Below, in pieces: positions 37,989 to 57,387 of a stretch of DNA of 64,000 nucleotides (position 1 is its first letter; each line of letters opens with the position of its first letter). The translations under genes and the position numbers were made by a program. Origin of the DNA: Lentinula raphanica (Eukaryota; Basidiomycota; Agaricomycetes; Agaricales; Omphalotaceae); NCBI GenBank assembly GCA_027919835.1, contig JANVFP010000031.1, positions 248,001 to 312,000 on the forward strand, in the 5' to 3' direction. Under the pieces are notes generated by a model. That model saw nothing but the letters and a program-made list of their open reading frames with translations, searched no databases and was not told the origin of the DNA.

Positions 37989-39887
37989 TTACCTACCCGC
38001 AAAAACAGTCATAACTGCAGCAGTAGATGAACGATTCGCATGATATGGCCGTCGGGATCGAGGTCGTGGTTCTTCAGGTAAAATCTTATCCACCAGCGCA
38101 GAAGGTAGCGGGTCCACATATCTTGGCACATTCGTCCCGAAATACCGTATACTATCTTCTTCTTCTTCCTCACCACCAGCAGCAGACGACGAAGGAACGT
38201 ATCTCCTCGCAGAGGAAACCCCATCCGGGTCAACAGAGTAATACAACACATCGTCCGTCTCCCGATGTCGATTTCGAATCAGATGATACTCCGGAAGCAC
38301 ATGAGACTCGATCACAAGTTGGTTCGGAGGATCGACTCCCATGGATGTCGGTCGAGGGACTTCTTCCGGACGAGGAAAGCCTGAGTTTAGATTGTTTAGA
38401 TTGTAGTGACTTTGATCTGTCGCGTTTCGACGCATCATCATCACGCTGTTTTCCACGTATTGCCGCATTCTCCTGTTGCCCCGGTACACGTCTCGATCTC
38501 TGGGACTGTAAGGGTCGAAAGCGGCTACATGAACAAAGAACCAAAGGGAAAAGAACCCAGGGGGTTTGATAAATGATCTTGGGTCGTGAATCATAACACA
38601 ATAAGAACACTCACGTAAACTGGGCGAAGTATGATTCTGAACTCGGACAGTGTTATCCCGATGATGCCCTGGCCTAATGACATCCGCATCATGCTGCATC
38701 TGAACCGGACTCGACGTAAACAACAACTCTTGTTCAGCTCGAGGGTCCCAACCGAACCCAGCCCGATCCCTAGAAGCTGAATTCTCCTGTGCGCGTTCTT
38801 CCTCGATAAATCCCAACCTAGACTCATCAGCTGTCGGATGTACATAGCTCGTAGGCTCCTCGAACAACAAAGGGGGATTCGACAGCGTCGAAGAAGGCGT
38901 AGGGAAATTCTGTACACCAAAATTGGATAACAACGACAGCCGACTCTGAGAGGAGGCAGCAGAGGGTAGGCTGGATGATACACTCGAGTTCTGGCGAGTT
39001 GGACCGGCTCTTGCTCTGAGATTGGCACGGAGGATAGACGCTTCCGCACTCGGAGACGGTGGTGCTCCAGGGTTATCCAGACTGCGAGAGATACGACTTT
39101 CGACCTCTAATCGGAGTTGTTCGAGAGAGGGATCGTTGTAACGTAGAAGCGCAGGTTCTGATCGTTGAGGTCTAGTACGAAGGCCATACTCGTATTGCCG
39201 TTCCATAACTGTGGGAAGCCTGTAGTGACTATCTCGAGAAGATGTTGTATTGGAACTGTGAGAGGAATCCCTCGCACTGTCTTGCGTAGATTCACGAGCG
39301 GCCACCCGTCGACCTAGTTCAGTATTAGGATCATCCGACAACGACGACATGGATTCCCTCCTTCTGAACGGCGGAGTATCATAATCCAACGGCCTGTAGG
39401 GCAAAAGCCGTTGACGAGGAGGACTGAGAGGGGACGCGAAATGGAGTGGGGACTGAACGGATGACGAGCGTGACGAAGATGGAGAGACGGAGGTGTCGAG
39501 GGGATGCATGTGAGCGGCAGCGGCGTGCAATAGATACGAATGAGCCCGATTGTTTCTCTCCCTCTCTAGCCTCTCTCGATCTGCGTCGACACGACGAGCC
39601 TCAAACTGCCTGAGACGCTCCCGGGTATCTGGAGGAATCATCGTCCTTATTCTGTCCATTCTCTCTCCTTCATCTGGGGAATCTCGTTCGTCTTGGCCGG
39701 TCAGGACGATGGCTTCGTGACCAGGACCTAATCTGTTCCTACTGTTGTTGGAGTTCAAAGAGTCCCATTGCTCCGGGGACAGAATTTCTCTTCTGAGATG
39801 TCGGATACGTTCGAATGCCAGATCAAGCCTCTGTGATTCTATGTCGTCTGAGGTGGGACGATTCGAGTTGGGGTCGCGGGATGACAT
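37989..39887 (-). CDS. Disordered Ser/Arg-rich hypothetical protein
   Basis: The first in-frame ATG is at 39887 (MSSRDPNSNRPTSDDIES); upstream the frame only offers GTG, so an earlier exon is possible. A helical segment (DLAFERIRHLRREILSPEQW) and an Arg/Glu-rich coiled coil (RLRQFEARRVDADRERLER) open the protein. A long Ser/Pro/Arg-rich middle follows with QNSSVSSSLPSAASSQ. An intron near 38.6 kb joins to VAAFDPYSPRDRDVYRGNRR. The C-terminus contains a poly-Glu patch (GGEEEEEDSIRYFG) and ends ANRSSTAAVMTVFAGR at 37989. I do not recognise the family and can only say it looks regulatory and unstructured. Confidence 0.68.
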   Translation of the reverse strand: MSSRDPNSNRPTSDDIESQRLDLAFERIRHLRREILSPEQWDSLNSNNSRNRLGPGHEAIVLTGQDERDSPDEGERMDRIRTMIPPDTRERLRQFEARRVDADRERLERERNNRAHSYLLHAAAAHMHPLDTSVSPSSSRSSSVQSPLHFASPLSPPRQRLLPYRPLDYDTPPFRRRESMSSLSDDPNTELGRRVAARESTQDSARDSSHSSNTTSSRDSHYRLPTVMERQYEYGLRTRPQRSEPALLRYNDPSLEQLRLEVESRISRSLDNPGAPPSPSAEASILRANLRARAGPTRQNSSVSSSLPSAASSQSRLSLLSNFGVQNFPTPSSTLSNPPLLFEEPTSYVHPTADESRLGFIEEERAQENSASRDRAGFGWDPRAEQELLFTSSPVQMQHDADVIRPGHHRDNTVRVQNHTSPSLRECSYCVMIHDPRSFIKPPGFFSLWFFVHVAAFDPYSPRDRDVYRGNRRMRQYVENSVMMMRRNATDQSHYNLNNLNSGFPRPEEVPRPTSMGVDPPNQLVIESHVLPEYHLIRNRHRETDDVLYYSVDPDGVSSARRYVPSSSAAGGEEEEEDSIRYFGTNVPRYVDPLPSALVDKILPEEPRPRSRRPYHANRSSTAAVMTVFAGR

Positions 39888-40918
39888 GGAAGGTACTTCA
39901 GAGAGGAAAGCGCTATCGTATTTCACAGAGATGACTGTTGTCGTTGGTGTAGTAGACTACAAAATCATCCATGAATGCATATCTGTCTTTTTGTACAAAC
40001 ACTCTCCAGCAAACTCACCCGTTGTCATGCACAGATTGAAGGCCGTTGAGAGATCCAAAATCCAGTTCGAAGATGAGGAGTCACTTGTACAAGAGAAAGC
40101 TCAGTAGTCTTCGATTAACTTGTGGTTTTGGTGGGAGAGGTGAAGAGCTTGTCAGAAGTCAACTTTTTTGCTCTTGATGAGAGTGGCCAAGTGTGGGCGC
40201 TAAAGTTAGCCGAAGCGTGCCTGGCCTTTTTGAGATTTTCCGTGCTCCTCGATTCATCTCCTAAACCTCACTCTATTCGGAATCGCCAACTTGGCCACCC
40301 CGTTTGTTTATGAGAATCATTGTATTCATGGCCGGTCACAACGAGATACAGCTCATCAGACCCTCAGACTACTAACTTATCTCTTTCGAAACTTCACAGC
40401 AAGCTCTGCGCTACGAAGATGGTTCAGAAAAAACCTTTGGTGGCATATGGACCGCCTTGAAAGTTGAAACTTATACTGATGATTGACAACGAGAAGAGCT
40501 GATGAACAGTGGCAATGATTATCAATTTCTAACGCTTTACATATGTCACGGCAACGAACAAACAGAGAAGGTGATCCATGCAGTGTCCTATTGATTTTGC
40601 GGTTATTTCAATTCGGTTTCGAATATTTTCAATTGTGACCTACATCATTACATGCACATCTTCTTTTCGAGTTGACCTTGATAATCGCTTTGATCAGAGC
40701 CGGATTTCTTCCAAGTCAAGATTCACTGACGAAGACTCAATCAACAAAATCCTTGAACATACACGCAATGATCATGATGATCCAGATTATGGACAATGCC
40801 CGTCCTTCGTTTGGGACCGAGAGAAAGCGAAGTACAATCAGTTTGTTGCATTGGCAGAACCAAATTCCGACAGACTACCGTGATAGTCACTGATTACAAC
40901 AACGATCATGAAGTACCA
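39888..40918. other. Spacer between the housekeeping block and the secreted-protein cluster
   Basis: Several short frames occur on the plus strand but none is convincing. The last 20 bases belong to the conserved 3' flank of secreted-protein copy A (a GAAGTACCACTACT-type box also found beside copies C and D). Confidence 0.45.
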
Positions 40919-41638
40919 CTACTGACCATGAAGCTGGTCAAGAAGTCGGTTAAAATTATCCCTCTCTTGGACAGATTGGGAGAACCTTATCTCGGATGAA
41001 CTTAGCTTTGCAACCACACCATTAATGAAAGCCGATAATGTCGCATGACTGGCCGCATTGATCTCCGCCCAAAAGTGGTCAGGGCTCACTACAGCACTCG
41101 TAGTCCCTATTATTTCAGTGTCACCACCTTCCTCAAAGTGATCCAGGACGGTGGCATGGATGAACGATTGGCCGTTCGGTGACCCGAAAGTTAGACCGTC
41201 GGGAACATAGGTTAGACCGTTGGGAACATAGGTTAGACCATAGGTATGTTGGGACTCGGAGTCGGATCTAGCAAGCTGCATCCACTTGTTGGCACCAATT
41301 CGAAAGCACACATTGTTGATTGGCCGGTAGGAAACGTTAATTACTGTGACCGACATCTTGACCTCTTGATAAGGTAGTGTGCCGTCGCAACATTATCATC
41401 AGAAAAACTGCCAGCTATGAAAGTAGAAGTCACACATACCCGTCTTAGGGTTATTGCGACGCTCGAGTGGAGAGTTGGGCTCAAGTGACGGGGACGCTTT
41501 CTGGAGCACAGGCGCCTCGTCTGGGGAGGAGGTTTGTGGCACGGGCGAGGCAATGCTCCCAAGAGCAAGAACAAGGAACATGAGAGCGGAAAGCGAACGC
41601 AGAGTCGAAGATTGCGGAAATATGGAAAAAGGTTTCAT
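40919..41638 (-). CDS. Secreted protein family, copy A
   Basis: Exon 1 (start 41638) encodes a signal peptide, MKPFSIF...LMFLVLALGSIASPVP, and a short Pro/Glu-rich pro-region with a dibasic ERRNN. A phase-1 intron leads to exon 2 (EVKMSVTVINVSYRP), with the family strand motif VCFRIG, a tandem 7-residue repeat (GLTYVPN GLTYVPD GLTF), and the family C-terminus (FWAEI ... VVAKL ... RFSQSVQE), stop at 40919. It is about 210 residues with a single cysteine in the mature part. Function unknown; the secretion signal and clustering suggest an extracellular role such as an effector or signalling peptide precursor. Confidence 0.75.
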
Positions 41639-42066
41639 TTCGAACGCCAGCTAAAGCAATGGGAATGGAGTAAGTAACTTGCGTCAACGAGAAATCGGAA
41701 AGGCGGTTGATGATAACGTACTGGTAGAAGATGGGTTTGCTGGGTTGAATACTAGGTGCGTAGGTGCAGGCGTATTGTCGATTGTGATTGACACACGAGA
41801 TTCCAGTGTATAACTGTATCACAACGGAAAAGACGAGAAGTAAGCAAAAAGAAATCTGCGATAGAACAGGATCATCGATGACTACTCACCGAACCAGCGT
41901 TGATACTAAAGACGAGGACGGTGACGGTCAGCCTCAGAAAATCGAGTTTGATGGGGGGAACAACATACCAAACAAGTGTGAAAGAGCGAGCGTTGAGTCT
42001 GGACTTCTTGAAGCTGAGACTGACGAACTGTTTCCAATCTTCAAGGCTTTTGTATCATTTGCTGAG
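41639..42066 (-). promoter_or_regulatory. Conserved promoter and spliced 5' leader of copy A
   Basis: Four blocks shared with the other copies: the first leader exon with CACACTTGTTTG / GTATGT at about 41.97-42.06 kb; a GAACCAGCGTTGATACTAAA box at 41891-41910 followed on the minus strand by the donor GTGAGT; the ACACGAGATTCCAGTGTA box near 41.79 kb; and the AACGTACTGGTAGAAG box near 41.72 kb. No long coding frame is conserved through them, so they look like non-coding leader exons. Confidence 0.6.
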
Positions 42067-42971
42067 CCTGCGGAATTATTCGAAATCTGGTGTGATGGAA
42101 CGAAAAACAACGCAGAGCACATGCGCAGAGCATCAGAGGGGATGATACATCCAAGGATTGATCAGTATCGAAACCTATCGATCGCATCGGTGCGCCGGCT
42201 CTGTGTGTCGCTCATTCACTTATCTCGCATAATTCCACTTGCATGGAGCTTCATGGAGTCCTCGCATGGTGCACAGCGGGTACGAATATGCTGTGGACGG
42301 TGGCGATAGCAGATAATCTTTTGTTAATAGCGCAGCGAGAGAAAGCCAAGGATTATTGAGGTTCACATGAACGCGTTACTATTGAGCGAGGGCATACCTG
42401 TGCCGGGTGCAGTGCATCGTCCAAGCATACCAGATGATCGTAAGATTCTCATCACTCGACTCTCTACCGAAGGCAGAAAGTACCTGAAAGTACTCGCACT
42501 GCCTGTGGAGTTTGCATGCAATCGATGATAAAGAGTATCTTGCTGCAGGGATGAAGTAAGAATTAAAGTGCAACGAAGCCCATTCGAGCAAATTCAAGTC
42601 TGTGATGATGGGAGTTTGGGTAGGGGGAGACTCAACTGAGCGCCTAGACACTGAGAACATCTAGATCATCGTGCATCGGCCAAGTGGATGTCATAATTAG
42701 GTGACAGGTCAGAGAAGATTGTTTGATACGAGAAAATCCACCCAACGGTTTCTTTCTACTGTTCCGAGACTCACCAAACAGTGGAATGAGTTGATATTGG
42801 TGAAGAGGGCTAAGACTAAGTAATGATGGTGTTCGAACACTAAGCCTGTGGACGTGAAAGGGAGAGGGATGAATTAGGTGTTGGTACAGCGTGAGTATCA
42901 TTAAGTACTCTATGGATGGACATACCACTTCATCCCACACACCACCGTGGTAGTCCATGAACAAGATACCA
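42067..42971. other. Spacer between copies A and B
   Basis: No gene is supported. A short stretch near 42.39-42.43 kb (CATACCTGTGCCGGGTGCAG) resembles DNA near 44.60 kb upstream of copy B, in line with duplication of gene plus spacer. Confidence 0.45.
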
Positions 42972-43640
42972 CTACTTGGCATTCGGAAGATTCCTAATCC
43001 TTTCAAGAAGCGCCGTCCTAGCTGCCAGCTGGGCTTTGGTTTGAGTGAACTTCATTCCCCCAAGCTTTTCAAAAACGACCTGCGTAAGATGTAATTCTGT
43101 ATCATAGGGCGCGCGCTCCTGGATCGCTGACCAGAACGATTCCCTCTCGATATAAGACACATGAACAGACCCTACCGTCGTTCCTCCACTTCCATCTGGG
43201 TCACGACTTTGGGAGACCGAAAAGCCACTAGCCACGGCGCCATTGCGGACGTATCGGACAGCCTGCCGAAAGCTCATCATGTCTTCACCGATCTGGAAGG
43301 CCACACCGTTGCCTCCGGGAACGAATAACTTGACAGTATGATCGATAGGACTTTCTAGGCCTTAAGACCATTGTCAGTCAAAGATTATGCCAGTTATGTA
43401 GGTAAGGTGATGGATACTTTTTATCGCAGTTTCTGGTTTCGTCTCGGGCGTCCATCCCGTATAAGATGAAAGATCGCTCCGACGCTTCGGTGACGGCGCA
43501 TCTTGAATTACGGGTCCCTCATGTAGAGAGAGTGGTTGTGGCACAGGCGAGGCAATACTCCCAAGATCAAGAACAACTTGAAGGAGCATGACTACGTAAA
43601 GCATATGCGGCGAGTACAAGAGCATTGATGGGATCTTCAT
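42972..43640 (-). CDS. Secreted protein family, copy B
   Basis: Start 43640: MKIPSMLLYSPHMLYVV, signal peptide ending LDLGSIASP, then a pro-region with the dibasic PSPKRRSD and the motif YTGWTPETKPETAIKS. The phase-1 intron (GTATCC...CTTAAG) rejoins at LESPIDHTVKLFVPGG. Exon 2 contains GVAFQIGED, FWSAIQERAPYDTELHL and KLGGMKFTQTKAQ, stop at 42972. It has no cysteine at all. It is closest to copy E in the C-terminal third even though E is 11 kb away. Function unknown. Confidence 0.78.
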
Positions 43641-44057
43641 GTTGAATGGCAACTGAAGGAACAGGTAATGGATAATTTGTTTCAAAAGACGGTGAATTAA
43701 TGACAACACACAGGTAGCAAATGATTTCTTTGAAGTCGATGATAGATGGGTAGGTGTAGGCGTGTGATAACTTTTCGTCAATTGGGGTGACAACAGACAC
43801 ACGAGATTCCAGCGTATCAACTGACGCGGAATCACATAGGAAAAACCACACTATAAGAAATTGTGAGTATCCTCGATGGAAACTCACCGAACCAGCGTTG
43901 ATACTAAAAGTGAAGAAGATAACTATAAGCTTGGGACAAGATTGATTTCGATGGGAACGTACCGAACAAGTGTGAAAGAGAAAAGTTGAGTCTGAACTTG
44001 AAACTGAAGAGCTGTTCCGAATCCATGAGGCTTTTGTATCTCGGTCGAGCCTGCGGG
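43641..44057 (-). promoter_or_regulatory. Conserved promoter and spliced 5' leader of copy B
   Basis: It has the same blocks as copy A: leader exon 1 at about 43.96-44.05 kb, GAACCAGCGTTGATACTAAA at 43889-43909, and the ACACGAGATTCCAGCGTA box near 43.80 kb. The TATA-like position reads GATACAAAA on the minus strand. Exon 1 here happens to contain an ATG (MDSEQLFSFKF), not conserved in the other copies. Confidence 0.6.
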
Positions 44058-46505
44058 AGGAAGTTGACAGGTATAAATTTTCTGATGTTTTGTCCTCCCA
44101 AGTCCGAGTTTCACATATGCATCCGAGAAAACAATCGTCAAAGACCGGATCCGTTGAGCCATGATTAGACCGTCGTTCAGTGACTAGTTGCAGACAGCGC
44201 ATCCAGGCCGAAGGAGGCCACAGGCGCATCCGAAGGATTCGTTGTCAAGGTCCGAGAGCGTCCGAGGAACACGAGAGACTCAGCCTCAGCCTCAGAACAC
44301 TGCAGTGGAGGCGTCTGATCAAACTAGTGTCAGGCTGCCGGATCCATACGTTTCACGGTGAGTTCAAGCCAGGCTGATCAAGTAAGAGGATCCAAAAGAA
44401 TAAGGAACTTGAGGATATTCTCCACCGAGAAAACAGATACACACTATGAGAATAAGCTCTGGTCCCTTTTTCCTTCCTTTTCTTCTTTTTCCAGCAATCT
44501 TCAGAAGAATAAACCATAAATCAGGGATGTCGGTCTCATGTGCAGACTGCGACAAGTTGGGTGTACAAAGTGAGCTGTGGGTGTGACGGTGTCAGACCTG
44601 TGCCAGGAGCTGCGCGTCATTTGAGCATACCAGTTAGCATTTCACCACCGCCGCAGATTTGCACGCGAATAATGGGTATTGTTTTGGATGAGCGCTGAAG
44701 CCGGGATGTAAGTCACATAGCAAGTCTTACTAGCAAAGAGAACGCACGAAGGTGACCGGTCAGAAATTGACCGCGTATGGGTTGAGTTCAAGGAGCTATC
44801 GGTGCCGGTGCTCGATGAGGAGGAAATGAAAGCAGACAGAGGGGAGGGAGGAATCAGCCCTAGCACAGTACCCTGTCGCCAGCGATATCACAGTAACACC
44901 GCGTCTTTCGAACGATTGATTGAGGTCAATCGAGGAACATCGAATCCAGCGTCTGTGCCCAGGGGTGACAATTTAAAATTAGCAGATAAAGCCGCAGGAT
45001 TCAGGTGCGCACGAGTGGATCTGGTCAAGTTTATTTCGATTCGGGTTTCCGCGCATATAGAAAAAACGATTGATTCTGTTGTGTCGTGTCAAGAAGTCAT
45101 TTTGGGGAAACAAACTCTACAGTCTACACAACGGCTTCTTTCCAATGCTGAAAACGCCGCCCCTCAGGATGTTGCTGAGCTGGACGTAGATGGGCGATAC
45201 GAATGAGGCTTTGGAGTCGAAGGCGATAGCTTGTTTCTGCGCAGGTATCGATGTTACGCGTTCGAATCTGGGTGACAGGCATTGAAGCTGGATACTAATA
45301 GGTCAAGACTTTTAACCAATACAAACTTGTGAATGAATCGGGAGATCAGAATAACATACGCTTTGCGGTCAACCATATCGTTCCTCATTGTTGCCCTTGC
45401 ATTCAAAGAGGTGGGTATCGTACCGTGGTTCACGAAAGCCCAAATGATTGATGATCTTATAGCGAACGAGATTAGTTGGGAGTAGTTCAAACCAAGATGA
45501 ACATTTGCCAAGCTCACCACTCGATCACTCGATCCATTGCAGTTACTCAACGTCAAAATCAGCACCAATCCTTTCAACCCCAGCTGCCCACCTCGCCTGT
45601 CTCAACCAGTCTGAGGATTGCCAAGTCAGTAAGTACATTCACCCAACGTCTTCCTTTTACTTGTTCAAATCCCGTCGAAATGTCGGAGATGACTCGTTGA
45701 CATTCGACGAAAAGGAAAAATTCACTGTTCAGTAACGAATTTGGGTTTGAGCATTGAGAAGAGTGTGAAGGAGGACACTGGACAGCAGACGACAGTAGAA
45801 GGAGAAGAGATAGGTCGAATGCTGTGTGTTCAGAGAGCGTTGAATATCGGGCTTTGTTCGAGGGATACAGTCTGAAAAGACCACATTGAACAGATTTATG
45901 ACATTTTTCTATTTCTCCTTGTCTAACCGAACGCGTCCGGGAGAGAGCAATTGGAAAGAGAGCAGGTTGAGTAGTTGCGGAAAAGATATTCTCCGTCAGC
46001 TTGAGAACGCAAGACGATCGTTGCACAAGGAGCTTGAAGAATCTATGCGATGTGATTTGCCCTCTGGTGCACGTGTTCCACAATAACCCCTTTTTCAACC
46101 ACCACCACTACCAGTGCCACTGACCAGGTATACTACTCTTCAAACACACTCTGGCATGTCTTCGTCCATCTTCGCGCTGCTCGAATGCACTATTTCACAA
46201 TGACCATAGTCAATTTGGAAATTGCCAAGTTGGAAGTCTTAAGAGCGCTAGAGCCTAGTAATAAAGGTTAAAGCGTCATTCACAAGTTCTGCTATGTTGT
46301 TAACATCTTCATATGCAATAGATCTCGTAGCTGCTGATGCGTGCAAGCTGTAGCCTGTAACCTCGCCCACCCAATATCACATCAACATGCTCTGTCGTCT
46401 AGATGCCGAGTCGCGCTCAAGATCTTACTGCTGCAATACTTTGTACATCTCTCACGGCTCAGGCCCGTACATAACATTGATTGGCAGTACAACAATGAAG
46501 TACCA
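44058..46505. other. Long spacer between copies B and C without a supported gene
   Basis: Both strands have short frames with mixed composition; none shows a domain, signal peptide or believable exon structure. The end nearest copy C carries the TGAAGTACCACTACT box of the conserved 3' flank (46487-46510). Confidence 0.45.
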
Positions 46506-47142
46506 CTACTCTAATTTACCAAGAATACTGACCCAATGAGTCCGCATCTCCGGAATCTGTTCGAATTGCGCGCCCTTTTCCTCCAGCCCCTCAACTAACA
46601 TCTTTACGAGTTGGGCCTTTGAATGGAAAACTTGAGACCGGAAATGTGTCAGAAATGTGTATAATTGGTCGGGGGCTACACCGTGGATTACCGCCACTTC
46701 AGGAATAGATGGTTCACTCCGTTGAGTCCGATCTGTACCATTCGGACCAGGTAAATTGTCTGCAGGTTCGATAGAAAAATATCTTTCCGGTGTCGAACAA
46801 GAGCGCCACATACTCCCTGGGCCATAACCAATCTGGAAGGCCAGGTTTTTGCCTGATGTGATCCACGCACTGAACACTTGATCAACAGATGCGAGTCAGA
46901 AATACTGTCAGTCGATTGAATGTCAGAAACAAGTACTTACTGTAGAAATGAGTTGTCCGAGCTGGATCATCACTACGACGCTCAGGGGGCAGCGTGGCAA
47001 GTCGAGGAACATGCTCGGGGGATGCTTCGTCTGGAGATTGTGTTGGCGGCACAGGCGAAGCAATACTCCCCAGAGCAAGAATGAGGAGCACGAGAGCCAA
47101 AAGCGTATGCAGAGAGGATTTTGACATGAATGGAATCTTCAT
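46506..47142 (-). CDS. Secreted protein family, copy C
   Basis: Start 47142: MKIPFMSKSSLHTLLALVLL, signal peptide ending LALGSIASP; the pro-region carries the dibasic PPERRSDD. The phase-1 intron (GTAAGT...ATCAAG) rejoins at FSAWITSGKNLAFQIGYG. The remaining C-terminal domain (FRSQVFHSKAQLVKMLVEG, ending WVSILGKLE at 46506) is the most diverged of the five; the FTQT motif is not recognisable. It has one cysteine. Function unknown. Confidence 0.72.
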
Positions 47143-47580
47143 TTTGAACAGCTGGAGGGATGGGCATTGACTTGTGTTGACAGATAAAAGGGGTGGTTGG
47201 TAATAACGTACTGATAGAGGATGGTTTGCTTTGTCAAGATACTAACTAGGTGGACAGTAGCAGCAGGTGTATTTTGATTTCTTGTCGATTTCGATTGACA
47301 CACAAGATCCCAGTGAATGACTGAGTCGCAATGAAAAAGGCACAGAGTAAGCCAAAAAACTTCAGAATCATTGGGATTGAATAGGATCATTGAAGGAAAC
47401 TCACCGAACCAGCGTCAATACTAAAATCATCGAAGACAGTGAGAGTAAGCCTCAAGCGAATCCAGTCCAGTGGGAAGAACAACTTACCAAACAAGTGTGA
47501 AAGAGCGTAAGATTGAACTTGAAGCTGAAGGGCTGTTTCCAATCTGCAAAGCGTTTATGACTTTGTCGAGCTTGTGACAA
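47143..47580 (-). promoter_or_regulatory. Conserved promoter and spliced 5' leader of copy C
   Basis: Leader exon 1 at about 47.48-47.57 kb (TTTCACACTTGTTTG / GTAAGT on the minus strand), the GAACCAGCGTCAATACTAAA box at 47406-47425 and the ACACAAGATCCCAGTGAA box near 47.30 kb match the other copies, with a few substitutions. Confidence 0.6.
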
Positions 47581-48712
47581 TAATCGCTTCACCTTGCTTG
47601 TTTCCGTCCTTCGCGCCTCTACTTCCTATCTCACTCTCGTTTCATCTTCGTTTCTCTCCGATATCGCTTTCTTTCTCCGGCTCTCGCATACGAGCAGCTC
47701 CACTTCCTATTTCTCTGTCGTTTCATCTTCTTTTCTCCAAATTCCAATGTCACTTTTTTGCATCTTTCGCACCCCTAGTCACCTTCTTATTCAAATTAGA
47801 CCGAGAGACTGTTCTGACACTCATTCGTGGAGGGAGATGGTAAGAGTTCTGGAGTGGAGGAAGGTTCCAGTTCACGTTTGATATCAAGGTCTTCGACCGT
47901 GTAGAGCATTTCCGACTCCTCCAGGAAGGATTTTTCGCTCCTCGTCCATCCCTTCCATACTCCGTCATCATGGCAAGCGTCGCGTGCAATCATCACATTC
48001 TTATATGGTCGAATGCGAATGCACCTCAACATCATCTCCTCTGGCCGAGTCCGGGTCCGTTTGTATTTGTTTCGTTGGCTTGTCATTGTTGTGGATTGAG
48101 ATATCAATAATGTTGATGATGTCGGTGTCGATGATGGCTCATGTAGGGGTGACAAGGCTACAAAGATGATGGTCACAAACTAGGGATAAGACACAGATCA
48201 GATAATTTTAACAAAACGAGAGATGGAGAGGGACTTTACAATCTCGTGGCATGTTCTTGTTCTACCCCTACTGTAAATGACGTGAGTCGCAAAAGCCCCT
48301 CTATCGACTTTTCGCGCTTCCAGTATGCAGTGGCGGCTATTGAGTGAGGGCAGATTGAGAATTTGAAAGGGAAGGAGAAAAGGGAAGGAGGACGGGAACT
48401 TCCGGTGAAGTATTGGTGCGATGGGTTCGATCCGTTCTCTGAAACGAGCTGTTGGCTGCTGTTGGTGGGAAGAAGATTTGTGTAAATCTGGGTGATATGG
48501 CCGGGAGGTACGGAAAGCACAAAATCCGACGTATGAGAAGAGGCAACGGTCACGACGGTGAGACTCCTGAGAGAGGGGCGAGAGTTGGCAGCAAGATTAG
48601 ATTACGGCGCCTAAACAGCGCTTGCCAACGCTCTCACATCTTATCGATATCCCTCGTTTTGGTCTCTTGGTTGTCCTCTTCAGATTTTTTCCGCGAGATT
48701 TGCTGGGAAGAC
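47581..48712. other. Spacer between copies C and D
   Basis: Pyrimidine-rich DNA. A minus-strand frame near 47.8-48.1 kb (LRCIRIRPYKNVMIARDAC) and another at 48.24-48.55 kb are open, but I could not link them to a start or a family. I do not call them genes. Confidence 0.4.
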
Positions 48713-48784
48713 GAATAAAAGCTCTGGCATGAATAAAAGCTCTGGCATGAATAAAAGCTCTGGCATGAATAAAAGCTCTGGCAT
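48713..48784. repeat. 18-bp tandem repeat, four copies
   Basis: The unit GAATAAAAGCTCTGGCAT repeats exactly four times, with starts at 48713, 48731, 48749 and 48767. It lies downstream of copy D and contains an AATAAA-type motif in every unit on the plus strand. Confidence 0.97.
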
Positions 48785-48934
48785 ACTAATGCTCTTGAGG
48801 CAAGTCAATTGCCACATCCACTGGTCTGCTGGCACGAACCAACTCCTGCCCTCTTCTAGTTTGTTGTATCAGAATCATATTCAACCGGCAGACTACTCCA
48901 GTGGTGGCCAGTTACAACATTGAAGTACCACTAT

Positions 48935-49494
48935 TTAATGATGTTCTATGATCTTTGCGAGAAAAGCTTTTGCAGCAGCCTCCTGCACTGGAGATTGAGT
49001 GAACCCCTGCACATCCTTCAGCTTTGCAAGCACTGTCTCTGCGCATATGTATATGGTATAGTAGCCGTAAGATGTTAAAACCGACTGCGCCGTCTCGGTA
49101 TTAGCGGAGGTGGCAAGAGACCCTACTACTACTTCATTGTCACCTCCACTTTCATTGGTCAATCGAACCTTGAGGTACTGTACACCATCGGAGGAAGTAT
49201 GTCCTTGGCGATAGGTCTCCCAACCCTGGCCATTACCTATCCTCAAACCTATGTTGCGGGCGGAGGGATGCTGATGATCTGGGATGATCCATAACTTGAC
49301 ATCTTGATTGGTAGGTGAAAGTCAAACACTGCTAGCCATTTGAATAGAAGATGCAAATATGTACCTTCAACAGTATTAGCCATCCCATGTTGTTGGAGCA
49401 TGGGTGAAGCAATACTTCCAAGAGGAGAAACAAGGAGGAAGAATACAGAAAGCGCATGCAGAGAGGATTTCGACAGAACGGACGAAATCTTCAT
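48935..49494 (-). CDS. Secreted protein family, copy D (short pro-region)
   Basis: Start 49494: MKISSVLSKSSLHALSVFFL, signal peptide ending SPLGSIASP. The Pro-rich pro-region of the other copies is almost missing (only MLQQHGMANTVE) and there is no dibasic site. The phase-1 intron (GTACAT...ATCAAG) rejoins at DVKLWIIPDHQHPSARN. Exon 2 contains GLRIGNGQGWE, an Asn/Gly-rich middle, and VLAKLKDVQGFTQSPVQEA, stop at 48935. One cysteine. Function unknown. Confidence 0.74.
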
Positions 49495-49905
49495 TTTGAA
49501 CAGCTAAAGGAACAGGTAATGAATTAACTTAGGCCAACGAAGAAATAAAGTCATCAGTGACAACGTACTGGTAGAAGAAAGTTTCTTTGTTGATAGTAGA
49601 TGTGCAGGTGCAGGCGTATGGTCTGATTTTTTGTCGAATGCGTTTGACACACAAGATACCAGTGTACAACTGTGGTAGAATTCCATGGCGAACAGTAAGC
49701 AATTAGTAAACATATGAGCATCGAGGAACACTCACCGAACCAGCGTTGATACTAAAAACAAAGAGGATAACTGTAAGCCCCGGACGAATTGAAATCAATT
49801 GACGAGCAACATACCAAACTAGTGCGAAAGAGCGTTGAGTCTAAACTTGAAGCTGAAGAACTGTCTCGAATCCGCGAGGTTTTTATATCTTTGTCGAGCC
49901 TATGG
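49495..49905 (-). promoter_or_regulatory. Conserved promoter and spliced 5' leader of copy D, with TATA box
   Basis: A good TATA element (AGATATAAAA on the minus strand, 49881-49890) stands just upstream of leader exon 1. The GAACCAGCGTTGATACTAAA box (about 49737-49757), the ACACAAGATACCAGTGTA box near 49.65 kb and the AACGTACTGGTAGAAG box near 49.56 kb are all present in the same order as in the other copies. Confidence 0.65.
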
Positions 49906-52015
49906 GAATACTCCTGCCTTATACAGGCCTGAACAGGCCTGAACATGGTCCGAGTCTCCGAGCGTTGGAACTCGGAAATCTGGTGAAGTCAGGGCTACAT
50001 AGTAAGGGTTGTTCAAGCCCAACGTTCAGGGCTGATGCGGATGGCGGCATTGAACAGCCTTGGAACTTCTATTATCAGCACAGGAGCATCGGATACGTTC
50101 CAGGAGCAAAGAAATTTCATACTAAGCGGTGCTCTGTCCGGACTCCGTCGCAGGCTGCAGCTTCAAAGGGTTGATTCCAAACTAGGATCGCAAAGATTAT
50201 TCGTTCTTCCTATCTGGACGAAACCCGGTGCCAAGCGCTAGCAAAGTGTGCAGTGTGCACAGATCTAAACAGGTAGACAGTGGACACAGATGAACCATGT
50301 GCAGCCGTGTGCTTTATGAAAGCCCGGCGGACGATTCGCGAATGTTAGCAGAAAAGACTCTAAAAGTCTCGCGTCTATTTGAGTCTACTACTTAGTCTTT
50401 GATAGCTGATTGATTTCGATTAACGCTCACCCAAAAACAAAACCGAGGCCAGGGAGGTCCAAGGGAATCCTTCATACTCTCGAAATAATCGGTGAAAACC
50501 AGCGGTTTGCAATTACGGTGAGGCTATGAATGTTAGTAGCCACGCTGCTGTGACTGTCCCCTGCTGTCCCCTGTTTCACCGTCTTGATCATCAGATTTTT
50601 GAAGTCGCGATGGTTTATTGGCGGAATTACTGTTATTTTCTCCTCCAAACCCTGACGAAGTGCGATAAGGTGCGATGCCGCGAAGATTGCTGGCTATTTC
50701 TGCACTATACATAACACCACTTTTGATTGTGCCTTGAGGAAAATCCATGATGTGCAACGAAGATGGCCGGCGATCCTTCCTCCAACTAACGCCACTTTTG
50801 ATTATTGTGCCATTAGGAAAAAGCGACAATAATCGACGCCGCAACGACCTGCAACGACGTCAAAATTGAAACTAGTACCGACCGTGGATGAAGCGCCCCC
50901 TGCAATGAGCTTCCATGAGAATCATAGATTCAAAAGAGGGGCTAATCCTGACGATTGAGATACACAATCAAAACCAGACCGACTGCTGATTACTGAGCAT
51001 TGAGTTGATCAACGGCCTGAAACCGTTGCTTACTAGTAACAAGCGATATTCAAGCACATTCATCCAAGATGCGACGGAAGTCTGCGGAAGTCACATAACT
51101 TTTGAAAAGCAAAATAGAATCGGTTACATAGAGCAAAACCAGGCAAAACCACATCATCGTCAAATCTGTGCAATGTGATGCATTGCAGGAGATTGCAGGA
51201 TGCGCACAAGACGCATGAGCCAATGAAAGTTGGTGCCTCCAATGAGCAACCAAGAACATGATCTTAGCCTTGATGATAAGGAGGACTCGGAACTTGAGCT
51301 TGATGCCTGTATGAAATCAGGGGACTCTTTCATGTTTCACTCTCGCGAAACACGGAGACGGTGATGGTGGCTTCGATATTCCAATCGTAGGGTATAGAAC
51401 TGAGCACTGGAGATCAAGAAATTCTACAAACATGAAGGGATACGAGACTGAGTTCGTTTGGCGAAAATATCAGAAATGCAGAGAAACTTACATCTTAGGA
51501 AACAGATTGAACCCATCTTTTACGGATATGACGGGCACTGCTAGCACAGCGTAAGTTCTCAAAAGTTGATGGAATTCTAGTGAAATTCCTATTCCAGATG
51601 AGAGCCTGGAATGTTTTATCGCTCGGTCAGTCTGCAAGTAAGATTAAACCTATGCTCAGAACATAAGGAACCAGTAGGACGACGATTACCACCACTGCAA
51701 GCCATAGTACAGCGGAGTCTGGAGAGTGCCTTCCTGAGGTTGGGTCTGTGATTCAAGCTGATTCAGAAGCAGAGGACGCGAGCTTCGAAGAGCAGCTGAT
51801 ATAGACTTAACGTGCTCGCTCTATAGCATTGGAGACCATTTCCGAGAGTTCACGAACGTCTTTCGTGAATGCAAGTCAGCGTGACAGTGTCTGTTCAAAA
51901 AAATCGTCGGAGTCGAGGTCGCGCAGCGGTTCCCAACCGGACCGGCTCTGATCCGGTGAAATGACGTCGATAGTATTAGACGAGTCTAGGCTTGAGGTCG
52001 TTCGACTTATGCGGC
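49906..52015. other. Spacer between copy D and the FPG gene
   Basis: No gene is supported. An internal direct repeat of about 30 bp (CACTTTTGATT..TGTGCC) occurs near 50.71 and 50.79 kb, and a short AGGCCTGAAC duplication near 49.93 kb. A 41-codon frame at 51244 (MSNQEHDLSLDDKEDSELEL) is acidic but too short to call. Confidence 0.4.
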
Positions 52016-53458
52016 ATGCCAGAACTCCCAGGTAAAGCTGAGGCTCACAGCTCCCACAACCCACTCATTGTTGACATTCATCTTCAGAAGTAGAACGTGC
52101 GGTGCAGCAAATTCGACGCATAGGTCTGAACAAAGTAATAGACAGAGTTGAAACTACCCAAGACGACATCGTGTACTCAGGAATAACTCATATAGAGTTT
52201 GTGAGCGAGAACTCTACCCATCTCATGCTGCAAAGGTTTATCGATATCTGCTGAATGGCAGGCTAATGAGATCAGCCGAAGAAGGATTGTTGGCGTGAAA
52301 CGATATGGTGATCATGCTCGCAGTGAACTTTCTATGCCATAACTCATTCCGGAGATCGTGCACAGGCAAATCTTTCTTCTTGGAACTCGATGGAACAGGA
52401 AGGTTCCCAGTCCTACATTTCGGAATGACCGGAATGCTTCAGGTAACAGCTCCATTCGAAACCCATCTCGAACACAATCTCATGTCTTGGCAAGGTGAAA
52501 GGCGAGAAAGCCATGTACTACAAAGAAACCCCGAGAAACGCTTCCACAGATTGGCCACCTCGGTTCATGAAGGTTCATCCTCGTTATATCCAACTTGCTC
52601 TAATCCATATTGACCTGGCTGATACAGTTTATACTCCATCTCCACGACGGATCCACACCAGAAACTAGTACTGAGATCGCCTTTATGGATGCACGAAGAT
52701 TGGGTAGGATCCGCCTTCGTGATTCTCCGGCCACGGAACCACCTATCTCTGCACTCGGTTTCGATCCAATCCTATGCATGCCCGCTTTGGACGTATTCGA
52801 GCCGCTCGTCAAGAAACGAAGCTGTCCAATCAAGGCTCTTTTGTTAGACCAATCGTTCAGTGCAGGAGTAGGCAATTGGGTCGCAGGTTCTTTTACTTCC
52901 TCTTGTTCGTTTGAAGATATCTCTCTGAACCGATGTCCGAAGATGAGATTCTCTACCATGCCCGTGTACATCCCGAACAAAGATGCAACACGCTGTCGCC
53001 CGCCCAAATTGGAGAGTTACATCGATGTACCAAATTCGTATGTGAGACTGCGGTCTCTGTTGATGCCGACGACACGAAATTTCCAGAAGACTGGTTGTTC
53101 AAACATAGATGGGTAAGAGAACTATATCTCATACTCCAGTAGTAGGAGCCATACGAACACGGATTGATACAATACTCAGGCAAAGGGGAAGAAAACGAAG
53201 GCGCAATCTTTAAAGCTGGTAATGATACAAAAGTCGCGAGGATATAATGTGGGGACTGTCGAACTTATTTCGTATCTTTAGCCTTCAGGTCAGCCGGCGA
53301 CGATTCGATGGGTAACAGTCGGTGGGCGAACATCAGCGTATGTCGTAGAACTGCAACACCTCCGAGGATCCAGTAGTAAAGTGCCTGCACCGTTGGATAC
53401 ACAAAACCCTACAGGATCGTCTTCATCCGATGTACGTCCTCATACGAACCTCCATTGA
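52016..53458 (+). CDS. Formamidopyrimidine-DNA glycosylase (Fpg/MutM family, zincless finger)
   Basis: It excises oxidised purines in base-excision repair. The first exon is tiny: ATG at 52016 gives MPELP, and the intron rejoins with EVERA, restoring the catalytic MPELPE N-terminus. Later exons give IVYSGITHIEF, GVKRYGKSFFLELD, LHFGMTGMLQVKGEKAMYY, FMDARRLGRIRL, IKALLLDQSFSAGVGNWVAD and EILYHARVHPEQ, the helix-two-turn-helix. The C-terminal motif TIRWVTVGGRTSAYV is the zinc-free finger typical of plant and fungal Fpg. The third exon border is less certain. The stop at 53458 is the simplest end; a GTACGT donor shortly before it could join further 3' exons of Ser/Lys-rich sequence. Confidence 0.85.
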
Positions 53459-53768
53459 CGATGGATCATTTGCTCATGTTGGTGGCTGCGCTACAGCTGA
53501 GTAAAAGTGACCTTCCAACGCTGACCGACTCAGAGTCGGAAATGAGGGCATCTCCTAAAAAGCGGGTGGGTCCTATCAATAGTTTGCTACAGCGCAATGC
53601 CATTCTGAAACTGCAACATCTTTAGAGAAAAGTCGCGAAGGACCCACGAAGATTACAACCAAGAAGAAAACGAATATCGAAGTAAATATCAAGAAAGGAT
53701 ACATGTATGTAAATTATTCACTATTTTCCTCCTCGTCTTCGTCGGTATACTCTTCCTCTGCTTCGTCG

Positions 53769-54010
53769 TCAATGAAACCGTTCATCCTCGTCTTTGTCTT
53801 CGTCATCCTCGTCATCCTCGTCCTCTTCTTCCTCAGACTCATTCTGACTACTTCCTACAAGTTCAATATCTTCAACATCTTCATCTTCATTCCCACTGTC
53901 CACCTCAACCCCAACATCCATCTGCGCATCCTCGTCCTCACTTTCTCCCTCTACGTAATGAGTTTCCTCGACAGTCAATGCTACAAAAGTGCCACTCCGA
54001 AAAGGTCACG
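53769..54010 (-). pseudogene. Acidic C-terminal exon fragment, copy 1
   Basis: The minus strand reads SGTFVALTVEETHYVEGE followed by Glu/Asp-rich sequence with SSQNESEEEEDED and a stop at 53769. A diverged copy lies immediately beyond. No upstream exons of such a protein are present, so it looks like a displaced exon fragment. The hydrophobic plus-strand frame over it is a shadow. Confidence 0.5.
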
Positions 54011-54173
54011 ACTCATGGAATCATGAAGGTCATTGAAACGAAGGAAAAAACGACTCATATCGAAGTAGATTTTAAGAAAAGACACATGTAGAATTCGGAT
54101 TATACATCGTTCTGAGTATCCTCCTCCTCGAGTCCTCTTCATCAGCTAGATGTTTGTCGTTATGTATTTGGAT

Positions 54174-54345
54174 CATTCAACATGGGTAGGTTCATTCTTG
54201 TCCTCATCTTCCTCTTCATCTGCCACCTCAGACTCATTCTGAGACTGCCTACTACATCCATTTGAGCGTCATTGTCCCCATCCAAGGCTCCACGTAATGA
54301 GTTTTCTCACTAGTCTCTGTGATAGAAGTCGGCTTCCCGGATTTG
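54174..54345 (-). pseudogene. Acidic C-terminal exon fragment, copy 2 (frameshifted)
   Basis: The minus strand gives SGKPTSITETSEKTHYVE, DNDAQMDVVGS and, in another frame, SQNESEVADEEEDEDKNE. These line up with copy 1 at 53769-54010 but need at least one frameshift, so this copy is decayed. Confidence 0.5.
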
Positions 54346-54559
54346 AATGCAAACACAATCCCAGTGACCGGGACCATTCACCTCCTTGACAAATTGGCAC
54401 AGCTTATGTTCATGTATACGGGTTGCACTGCTGAACTCGAAGCTGAACTATCAGGACTTCGAGGGGCTGACACATTTGTTGTATCAGAATCATATTCAGT
54501 GATTCCTACTAGTCACAACAACGACTGCCAGTCCCTAATGCATGATGAGCCCCCACCAC

Positions 54560-55267
54560 TTAATTCTGAAAATCTCCAATTTGGTTAAGAACTTCTCTGG
54601 TGAATGTCTGCTGTCGTCGAGTTTGAGTGAACCGCATTTCCCCAAGCTTGGCGAACACTGCCTGCGCGAGATGTAGTTTCGTGTCATAGGGTGCGCCCTC
54701 TTTGATCTCTGACCAGAACCTTTCCCTCTCGGCATCAGATATACGAACAGTCCCTACTTTCACACCTCCCGTGTATTCACAATGAGAGATAGAAATGCCA
54801 GATGCTGTACTCACACTCTCTTGAGCACTCGAATTCTCTGAGCCTTTACCAATTCGGAAGGCCACAATCACATTGTTGCCTTCGGGATCACCTCCAGGAG
54901 GAATCATGAACATTACACGAACGGAACGCTTGGCGGGTTCAATGCCTTCAAGAGATCAGAGTCAGTCGATGATGCCAGCTATGAATAAGAAGAAGTCACA
55001 AATACTGTTTATTGCAGTGTCCGAACTTGTGTCCGGTGTCCATCTCGTATAAGGTGTAAGTTCATGATGATGATGCTCAGGTGGTGGCGCAGCCAGTGGA
55101 GGAACGCGTTCACTGTCAGGTGAGGGCGGACTTTGGAGCACGGGCGCATCGCGTGGGGAGGATGATTGTGGCACGGGCGAGGCAATACTCCCAAGAGCAA
55201 GAACAAGAAGTATGAGTATCGAAGGTGTATGCAAGGAGGATTTCGACAACATGAAAGGAATCTTCAT
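54560..55267 (-). CDS. Secreted protein family, copy E
   Basis: Start 55267: MKIPFMLSKSSLHTPSILIL, signal peptide ending LALGSIASPVP; a long Pro-rich pro-region contains a His run (PPPEHHHHEL) where copies A-C have the dibasic site, then TPYTRWTPDTSSDTAINS. The phase-1 intron (GTATTT...TTGAAG) rejoins at IEPAKRSVRVMFMIPPGG. Exon 2 has VIVAFRIGKG, FWSEIKEGAPYDTKLHL and KLGEMRFTQTRRQ, stop at 54560. One cysteine. Its C-terminal half is nearly superimposable on copy B. Function unknown. Confidence 0.78.
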
Positions 55268-55720
55268 TTTGAGTGACAGCTGAAGGAACAGGCATTGATT
55301 AACTTGCGTCAACGAAGAAGAAACGTTATTGATGACAACGTACTGGTAGAGGAAAATCTCTTTGTTGATGGTAGATTAGTAGTATGCAGGTACAAGCGTA
55401 TGGTCTGATCTTTTGTCGAATGTGAATGACACACAAGATTCCAGTGTATAACTGACATGGAGTAGCATAAGACAAGCCATCTGAGTGACACAATGAACAT
55501 TCAAGATAGGTATCGAAGAACACTCACCGAACCAGCGTTAATACTAAGAGGATATCCGTAAGCTTGGGGCAAATCGAATTCGATGACGAGTAGTGTAGTA
55601 ACGTACCAAACAAGTGTGAATGAGCGTTGAGCGTTGGACGTTGACGTTGAGTCTGAACTTGAGCTGAGGGCGCTGAAGCCGAAGAGCTGTTTCGAATCCG
55701 CGAGTTTCTGAGGGTTTTGG
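55268..55720 (-). promoter_or_regulatory. Conserved promoter and spliced 5' leader of copy E
   Basis: It has the same four blocks in order: leader exon 1 at about 55.60-55.70 kb (with an extra AACGTC-type duplication), the GAACCAGCGTTAATACTAAG box at 55529-55548, the ACACAAGATTCCAGTGTA box near 55.43 kb and the AACGTACTGGTAGAGG box near 55.34 kb. Confidence 0.6.
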
Positions 55721-55927
55721 GCCGTTCGTGACTCTAGTGCGTACTCGACTCAGCTAGTAGACTCAGCTCGACTCTAGTAAGTCACGTACTCGACTCCCAG
55801 TCGTTAGTGTCAAGAGGTATGATCGATTCTGCCCTATTCTGCCTTTGGGAGACAAGTAAATCACGTACTTACATAGTAAATGCTCATGCACATGTGTTTT
55901 GCGTTCTTTTATCATCTTTGTACTGCT

Positions 55928-57387
55928 CAGGGGGCCCACGTAAGCAAAAAAATGGGTATCGCAAAACCTGTTGGGGTCTGTTTGGTATTTCTTTGGTAAT
56001 CCATCAAGCCGAAAATGAGCCGAATATGCCGACCCAAGCGCCCTAATCTTCGTTGTATCGATTTCTCTGCAATTATCATCGATTTTGTCCATCCATACTC
56101 GATCTAGTGCTATAATGATAGATTACTTCTTGACAATATGCCATCTACGGTCTTTCCTCATGCCATCAACAGCCTCAACGCCTGACCCGCCTCCGGAATT
56201 TGTGTATCACCACACTGGAAACAATGTCCTTCGGTTCCCAACTTTTAGTGAGGATGGGAAGCTCGTTGTGCACTGTGATCTATGCGGAGGATCGTACTCA
56301 GTTGGTCCACGCGGTAGCACAGCGAACTTTGGCAATCATCGAAGATCTTGTGGGCGTTCAATTGCGCAGGTATGTAAGCTGCTTGTGTTCCATTGGTCTT
56401 TTTGGTTGAACATTCTTCTACATCCAGAATCGATCCAGAGCTCCATCAACTCCAGCAAGACCTGCTAGTGCAATGGCAGCACCTTATCCTTCGATCTCTA
56501 CACGTCTTGCACCTGTCACAACACCGAGTCAATTCACACAACCATCCCATTCATTTACTAGCTCAGTTCAATCTCTTGAGAGCATGATACCCTCTGATAG
56601 ACCTCTCGAGTCTCCCAAATCCGACGCCATCAGTGATATGCAAATGTCTGACCTCTCCGGTGCTATCTCTCATCTCAGTCTGTCCGATACTCAGGATCCG
56701 GCTCCTTCTCAATTCGAGTCCCGATCTAGCGATACTAGAAATCAATGCAAAGGTGCTCTCGTACACTGGAAGCCAGGAAACATCTGGCTGACATACAGCT
56801 TCGCCATGCACTCGCATGATAAAAATCCTCTTCCCTGGGAACTCGCTAATATCGTAGATGGAACCACACTGGATATCCGATCGCTCAACTGTAGAGGCAC
56901 TTTGTCCGGGTTTGAAGAACCTGGATCGGATTGCTGTGACACTTGTAGTAATGCTCCAAACAGATTCCTCTCAGCTCAGATCGTTGATCTACGTGCTCAG
57001 AACCGAATTCTGCTGGATATCATACAGCGCACAGGAAATATCTTCTCCGACATCACTCACGCGAGTAAACGTCTCGATGGACCAGCAAAGTTTCGAGACA
57101 CACTCAATGCATATTTTTTGGACAACGGTGTTGAAGAAAATCAGTCGCAATGATGGCCATGTTATTATAGCCTTTTATTACTATCAAAATTCTAGAGATT
57201 GCCCTTCCTTTGCTACGTTTCGTCCGATTTCTTGCTGCACCATCTCACTTACGGCTCACCTGCGGCTCACTCCCGGCTCGCTCACGGCTAGTTCACGGCA
57301 AGTCTGGCAAGTGCATCGCCTCCGTTGACCAAACAGACCCCAACAGGTTTTGCGATACCCATTTTTTTGCTTACGTGGGCCCCCCTG
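55928..57387 (+). mobile_element. 1.46-kb terminal-inverted-repeat DNA transposon (hAT-like)
   Basis: The ends at 55928-55985 and 57329-57387 are inverted copies of one 58/59-bp sequence starting CAGGGGGCCCACG; they differ by one extra G/C pair. The element is flanked by a perfect 8-bp duplication, GTACTGCT, at 55920-55927 and 57388-57395. CAG termini and 8-bp duplications fit hAT (or KDZ) elements. GAGCCG/CGGCTC motifs are clustered just inside both ends (left about 56.0 kb, right about 57.25-57.30 kb), as expected for transposase-binding subterminal repeats. It carries one gene with a BED-like finger but no DDE/RNase H core, so it is probably non-autonomous. Confidence 0.92.
56160..57153 (+). 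CDS. BED-finger protein carried by the TIR element
   Basis: Start 56160 (MPSTASTPDPPPEFVYHHTG). The first exon encodes a finger CDLCGGSYSVGPRG...H-x3-C, that is C-x2-C-x17-H-x3-C with STANFGNHR in the place of the usual BED STSNLxxH. One intron (GTATGT...ATCCAG) joins to a Ser/Pro-rich linker (NRSRAPSTPARPASAMAAPY). The C-terminal part has WKPGNIWLTYSFAMHSHD, LPWELANIVDGTTLDIRSL and a Cys pair (CCDTC), ending at 57153. It resembles the DNA-binding end of hAT transposases without the catalytic part; it could be a transposition repressor, a captured gene or a truncated transposase. Confidence 0.68.

What the first reader, a model, noticed from the sequence alone, without database searches (positions are those of the whole stretch)
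40919..55720. Five-member tandem family of small secreted proteins with a frozen leader and signal peptide but diverged mature domain
Seen in sequence: copies A-E (40.9, 43.0, 46.5, 48.9 and 54.6 kb), all on the minus strand, share LxLGSIASP at the signal-peptide end, one phase-1 intron in the same place, a strand motif [AG][FL][RQ]IG, and in four of five a C-terminal KL..F[TS]Q[TS]..Q helix, while the middle has almost no conserved residues. 5' leaders and short 3' boxes are also conserved. This is the pattern of a rapidly evolving extracellular family; I know no named family that matches. Role as effector, toxin-like factor or signal precursor is inference.
Basis: partly seen in the sequence, partly recalled or inferred. 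Interest (0 to 1): 0.88.

Follow-up and report, generated by a model that had tools for sequence, protein, structure and literature searches.

The report
Tandem secreted proteins of a mushroom
A shiitake relative carries five side-by-side genes for small secreted proteins whose untranslated leader and export signal stayed alike while the exported part changed greatly, and that part is predicted, on weak structural evidence, to resemble an enzyme that has lost its active site.

The parts
40919..41638 (-). copy A, 214-aa precursor; CDS exon 1 41638-41440, intron 41439-41365, exon 2 41364-40919
   Evidence: protein identical to deposited P0001
41639..42068 (-). leader of A with introns 41968-41906, 41889-41814, 41721-41651
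42972..43640 (-). copy B, 203-aa precursor; exon 1 43640-43418, intron 43417-43361, exon 2 43360-42972 (deposited P0004 of another strain uses a different acceptor)
   Evidence: identical to deposited P0002
43642..44052 (-). leader of B with introns 43962-43904, 43887-43821, 43711-43653 (last donor GTGTGT)
   Evidence: P0003 crosses the first two junctions
46506..47142 (-). copy C, 190 aa, or 172 aa if the 54-nt stretch 46813-46760 is spliced out; exon 1 47142-46941, intron 46940-46877, exon 2 46876-46506
   Evidence: deposited orthologues P0006 and P0011 lack the 18 residues
47143..47573 (-). leader of C with introns 47487-47421, 47404-47321, 47211-47152
48935..49494 (-). copy D, 165-aa precursor; exon 1 49494-49365, intron 49364-49303, exon 2 49302-48935
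   Evidence: deposited orthologue P0005 differs at 4 of 165 residues, all in exon 2
49495..49901 (-). leader of D with introns 49814-49752, 49735-49670, 49568-49504
54560..55267 (-). copy E, 215-aa precursor; exon 1 55267-55006, intron 55005-54946, exon 2 54945-54560
   Evidence: one search listed no protein more than 61% identical to E over its aligned part
55268..55705 (-). leader of E with introns 55606-55544, 55527-55452, 55343-55280
41890..41905 (-). 16-nt leader micro-exon of A (others at 43888-43903, 47405-47420, 49736-49751, 55528-55543); mean pairwise identity 94%
40908..40921 (-). 3' box TAGTGGTACTTCAT across the stop codon of A; also C 46495-46508 and, with last base A, D 48920-48933
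   Evidence: sequence; in part (D18)

Best explanation
A tandem family of secreted precursors, so far seen only in Lentinula raphanica. Each gene has its own conserved leader with three introns and no ATG in the last 195 spliced bases. It makes a signal peptide, a spacer with a dibasic (Kex2-type) site in 7 of 9 sequences checked, and a mature domain of about 125-150 residues with 0-1 cysteine. The mature domain is most likely a permuted papain-like (NlpC/P60, PPPDE/PLAAT-type) scaffold without catalytic Cys and His, acting outside the cell as a binding protein, not an enzyme. Shown: reading frames and splice sites, divergence of the domain against the leader, no second cluster found, members in other strains without a close copy here. 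Predicted with moderate to weak support: the fold. Inferred: secretion itself, loss of catalysis, Kex2 processing, and the role as a diversified extracellular ligand or inhibitor toward other microbes, prey or other strains.
Confidence: 0.45

Rival explanations
1. An orphan secreted family with an unrelated alpha+beta fold; the resemblance to permuted papain-like proteins is a common arrangement only.
Confidence: 0.4
2. The strong leader conservation reflects gene conversion among the tandem copies, and exon 2 is merely old and weakly constrained, with no arms race.
For: dS in the signal-peptide exon is 0.41-0.75 over 10 pairs, in exon 2 0.73-4.16 over the 9 computable pairs; no pair has dN/dS above 1. 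The signal+intron segment favours C with D (bootstrap 92%), a grouping that the leader rejects (AU 0.0041 or less), so a local exchange is possible.
Against: One topology, (A,C),(B,E),D, is not rejected by the AU test in any of five data sets (0.14-0.81). Exon-2 dS is inflated by poor alignment. Leader exons are kept better than leader introns (78, 94, 79 and 83% against 70-74%), which points to constraint.
Confidence: 0.33
3. A prepro-peptide (signal precursor) system in which the released product is a peptide from the spacer, not the folded domain.
For: Dibasic sites in 7 of 9 sequences.
Against: D has a spacer of only about a dozen residues and no dibasic site; no repeated spacer peptide seen by eye; a confidently modelled domain follows.
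Confidence: 0.07
4. Young or decaying duplicates without function.
For: Very low exon-2 conservation of C; a second splice form of C is possible.
Against: Five of five reading frames, splice sites and signal-peptide cores are intact; compared orthologues keep 95% or more identity: B with P0003 and P0004, D with P0005, C with P0006 and P0011.
Confidence: 0.08

Closest known systems
PPPDE / DeSI (Pfam PF05903, Peptidase_C97; 2wp7, 3ebq)
   Different: No conserved Cys or His, signal peptide present, no significant sequence match.
LRAT/PLAAT and picornaviral 2A H-NC proteins
   Same: First rows for D and lower rows for B.
   Different: They carry a conserved Cys and His (PMC8316810, passages); here neither.
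DUF6540 / DUF6914 of fungi (PF20174, PF21858)
   Same: Families present in this genome; DUF6540 is listed as papain-like with a CHH triad in PMC10318531 (passages).
   Different: Members read keep H and C motifs and start without an obvious signal peptide (by eye); no profile similarity to A-E.
Small secreted proteins (effector-like orphans) of Agaricomycetes
   Same: Signal peptide, under 300 residues, no Pfam domain, tandem; members differ between strains.
   Different: Not cysteine-rich (0-1 Cys); a well-kept leader with three introns. That such a leader is unusual is my judgement; no survey was made.

Membership tests
permuted papain-like (NlpC/P60 clan, PPPDE/LRAT type) | core sheet followed by the helix that carries the nucleophile (permuted order) | tested here: inconclusive
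permuted papain-like (NlpC/P60 clan, PPPDE/LRAT type) | catalytic Cys at the start of that helix | tested here: not met
   0 of 8 sequences have Cys at the helix-2 cap, Ser/Thr in 8 of 8; no column has Cys in more than 2 of 8; the equivalence of the cap is inferred from the models
permuted papain-like (NlpC/P60 clan, PPPDE/LRAT type) | catalytic His on a core strand | tested here: not met
   no alignment column has His in more than 3 of 8
PPPDE (PF05903), DUF6540 (PF20174), LRAT (PF04970) | profile match above the curated cut-off | tested here: not met
   0 of 8 mature sequences list any of them (max E 10, though HMMER's filters drop most matches above about 0.1)
small secreted protein (effector-like orphan) | N-terminal signal peptide, short, no known domain | tested here: met
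   165-215 aa; hydrophobic cores 2.5-3.5 (no dedicated signal-peptide predictor was run); no Pfam above cut-off
small secreted protein (effector-like orphan) | cysteine-rich mature part (common, not universal) | tested here: not met
   0-1 Cys per mature domain in 8 of 8
small secreted protein (effector-like orphan) | induced on contact with host, prey or competitor | not testable with these tools
   no expression data available
fungal repeat-type Kex2-processed peptide precursors (definition recalled) | several similar peptides between dibasic sites | tested here: not met
   at most one dibasic site or run per precursor in the N-terminal parts scanned (9 sequences)
hydrophobin (definition recalled) | eight-cysteine pattern | tested here: not met
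   0-1 Cys in 8 of 8 mature domains

The most novel reading that the evidence does not exclude
A secreted, catalytically emptied branch of the permuted papain-like fold has become a diversifying extracellular recognition family in one mushroom species: Ser/Thr stands where the Cys nucleophile would be in every member aligned, strains carry different sets of members, and the leader and export signal are held nearly fixed while the exposed domain turns over.
Probability: 0.3. Interest if true: 0.68.

Novelty: new variant of a known kind. Interest (0 to 1): 0.5.

Why it matters
If the fold is right, an enzyme scaffold has been turned into a fast-changing extracellular binding protein within one mushroom species. 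The contrast between a kept leader and a changing product makes a compact system for asking what drives turnover of secreted proteins in saprotrophs: strain recognition, competitors or prey. Differences between strains make the question testable in crosses and pairings.

Tried and rejected
Recombination between copies: a DNA search with the leader of E ranked D first while exon 2 of E is nearest B, which suggested exchange. AU tests leave (A,C),(B,E),D acceptable in all five data sets, but the signal+intron segment favours C with D (bootstrap 92%), which the leader rejects. So a whole-module exchange is not shown and a local one is not excluded.

Descent from fungal DUF6540: motif spacing looked similar by eye, but profile comparison gave 0.3% probability, and P0019 and P0024 score below many of their own shuffles. 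Not claimed.

Positive selection by dN/dS: no pair above 1, one pair (B-C) not computable. Not claimed.

Leader as a structured RNA or an upstream coding frame: no Rfam match at gathering threshold in 40800-55800; no ATG in the last 195 spliced bases of 5 of 5 leaders, each alone 5-10% likely in shuffles. Against this, deposited models P0003, P0004 and P0009 do read the leader as coding, and P0004 splices it in another way. RNA structure outside Rfam was not tested.

Leader as a mobile promoter: the genome search with the leader of E lists A, B, D and E only; it missed C, so it is not exhaustive. The 110 bp upstream of the leader are at chance level (58% against 59% shuffled), so a conserved promoter beyond the leader is not shown.

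Viral structure library: no match at E <= 0.001. Viral contigs with the DeSI-type protein: 7 pattern matches, none confirmed.

Literature (one PMC library; listings only, save passages of PMC10318531, PMC8316810 and PMC3142127): Lentinula raphanica with genome, 3 papers; a wider search, 67 papers, 20 listed; Lentinula with small secreted proteins and effector, 14 papers, 12 listed. None was about this family by its listing. Other searches. Subscription papers are not held, so absence from print is not claimed. A published Lentinula phylogenomic study is known to me by recall only and was not read.
Full report
WHAT IS THERE. Five genes on the minus strand, A (41638-40919), B (43640-42972), C (47142-46506), D (49494-48935) and E (55267-54560), each give an open precursor of 165-215 residues once one phase-1 GT-AG intron of 57-75 nt is removed. 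LGSIASP ends the signal peptide in 5 of 5, L.LGSIASP in 4 of 5. The hydrophobic cores have a best 11-residue mean hydropathy of 2.5-3.5; no dedicated predictor was run. The window lies on a 669,993-base contig of a 49.06-Mb genome. Deposited proteins P0001 and P0002, named Lentinula raphanica and on a contig of that same length, equal my models of A and B letter for letter. So the species is settled, and the coding intron agrees with the deposited annotation for those two; another strain's B model (P0004) uses a different acceptor.

THE LEADER. Upstream of each ATG lie 407-438 nt that all five share. They contain three introns, with a 16-nt micro-exon between the first two (one donor in B is GTGTGT). 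Two junctions are crossed by deposited gene models of other strains (P0003, P0009). Those models, and P0004, run the leader into the protein as coding sequence, and P0004 splices it differently. I read this as mis-annotation, but it is evidence on the other side. Leader exons are kept better than leader introns: mean pairwise identity 78, 94, 79 and 83% for the four exons, 70-74% for the introns, against 54-64% in shuffled controls; the 110 bp further upstream are at chance (58 against 59%). No spliced leader has an ATG in its last 195 bases; each alone would show this by chance in 5-10% of shuffles, and the five are related, so this is supporting only.

HOW UNEQUAL THE DIVERGENCE IS. Leave-one-out profiles, built from four copies and run over the window, recover the fifth leader at 228-296 bits with no other hit at E <= 10. 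The same test for exon 2 on a nucleotide scale recovers it at 95 (E), 63 (B), 34 (D), 16 (C, a 64-nt piece only) and 15 bits (A). On a protein scale E-values run from 4e-20 (E) to 0.21 (C). So the stretch before the ATG is much better conserved than the coding exon it serves. Nei-Gojobori dN/dS for exon 2 is 0.28-0.68 over the 9 computable pairs of 10, never above 1, with dS above 1.2 in 8 of 9; the best-aligned pair, B-E, gives 0.57. I claim fast divergence, not proven positive selection. One topology, (A,C),(B,E),D, is not rejected by the AU test in any of five data sets (0.14-0.81), but the signal+intron segment favours C with D (bootstrap 92%), which the leader rejects (AU 0.0041 or less). 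Gene conversion is thus neither shown nor excluded. Copy A also carries a 21-bp repeat, 2.4 copies, in exon 2.

WHERE ELSE IT OCCURS. Whole-genome searches with P0001, P0006, P0007, P0009 and P0010 and with the leader of E list only cluster members, apart from one chance-level row at E 0.07 on C23. Their sensitivity is limited: only the P0010 search listed all five copies; D is missing, A, C. A diverged copy elsewhere could be missed. The profile search of 5.8 billion proteins lists 10, all L. raphanica, from the 7998 best candidates scored. The mature-domain profile lists 5 of 935 candidates, all L. raphanica, one of them new (P0011), but it did not list P0005, P0007 or P0008, which are family members of fitting length. 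The same database returned L. guzmanii, L. lateritia and L. edodes proteins for another query, so these species are represented. Restriction to L. raphanica is therefore likely, not proven. Orthologues in other strains are close: B differs from P0003 at 1 of 203 aligned residues and from P0004 at 10 of 201, D from P0005 at 4 of 165, C from P0006 at 2 of 172 and from P0011 at 1 of 160 by that alignment (one of the two C-P0006 differences lies at the edge of the 54-nt stretch and vanishes when it is spliced out). Yet P0007, P0009 and P0010 find at best about 50, 48 and 32% identity in exon 2 here (P0008, a near copy of P0007, was not searched). Membership varies between strains, or some loci carry extremely diverged alleles.

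COPY C. Removing a 54-nt GTATGT..CTGCAG stretch (46813-46760) makes C equal to deposited P0006 at 171 of 172 residues. Whether it is an intron, a retained intron or coding is open.

ACTIVE SITE. No column of the eight-sequence mature alignment has Cys in more than 2 rows or His in more than 3, so a shared Cys-His site is very unlikely whatever the fold, as far as the alignment is right. At the cap of helix 2, where a permuted papain-like enzyme would carry its Cys, all eight have Ser or Thr (Thr88 in model B, Thr83 in model D). This is suggestive, not proof: Ser/Thr caps are common, another column is also 8 of 8 Ser/Thr, and no residue-level superposition was available. PMC10318531 (passages) describes papain-like families with Ser in place of Cys beside the remaining active-site residues; here the His is missing too.

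SEQUENCE TESTS AGAINST MY READING. Profile against profile with 13 DUF6540-type sequences: 0.3% probability. Profile against the genome's own DeSI-type protein: 2.2 bits, in the register that the fold suggests to me, reached by 3 of 500 shuffles; 15 proteins were tried, the highest being P0016 at 3.5 bits, for which no shuffles were run. These do not support homology.

MECHANISM. Most likely: expression with a conserved multi-intron leader, export by the signal peptide, trimming at a dibasic site where present (7 of 9; absent in D and P0008, and in E at the very start of the domain), and release of a stable, cysteine-poor, non-enzymatic domain that binds a partner outside the cell. Turnover of the domain and of membership between strains fits recognition of a changing partner, be it competitor, prey or another strain. 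All of these steps except the sequence features are inference.

SCORES. Interest 0.5.

Noticed in passing
window 55930-57384: A DNA-transposon-like element with perfect 57-bp terminal inverted repeats and an ORF at 56410-57153, about 225 bp upstream of the leader of copy E. One search gives 49 match rows genome-wide, its own copy and repeat-only or partial rows included; pieces on C5 and C3 are 100% identical, so it was probably active recently.
   Followed up: partly
window 46760-46813: In copy C a 54-nt in-frame, stop-free stretch from GTATGT to CTGCAG that deposited orthologues leave out: possible retained or alternative intron.
   Followed up: partly
window 48713-48784: Four perfect copies of an 18-bp unit between copies C and D.
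   Followed up: no
window 48860-48883 and 54475-54498: A 24-nt exact repeat downstream of D and of E, outside the genes.
   Followed up: no
window 52604-53113: A plus-strand open frame with a weak H2TH (Fpg/Nei-type glycosylase) match, below Pfam's cut-off, between D and E.
   Followed up: no
window 32895-35447 and 37992-39956: Long open frames of 851 and 655 codons without a Pfam match at E <= 0.001.
   Followed up: no
L024 (contig C25): A DeSI-1-type gene with both catalytic motifs (HTS.. and NCN..) in its exons, useful as a reference for the fold comparison.
   Followed up: partly
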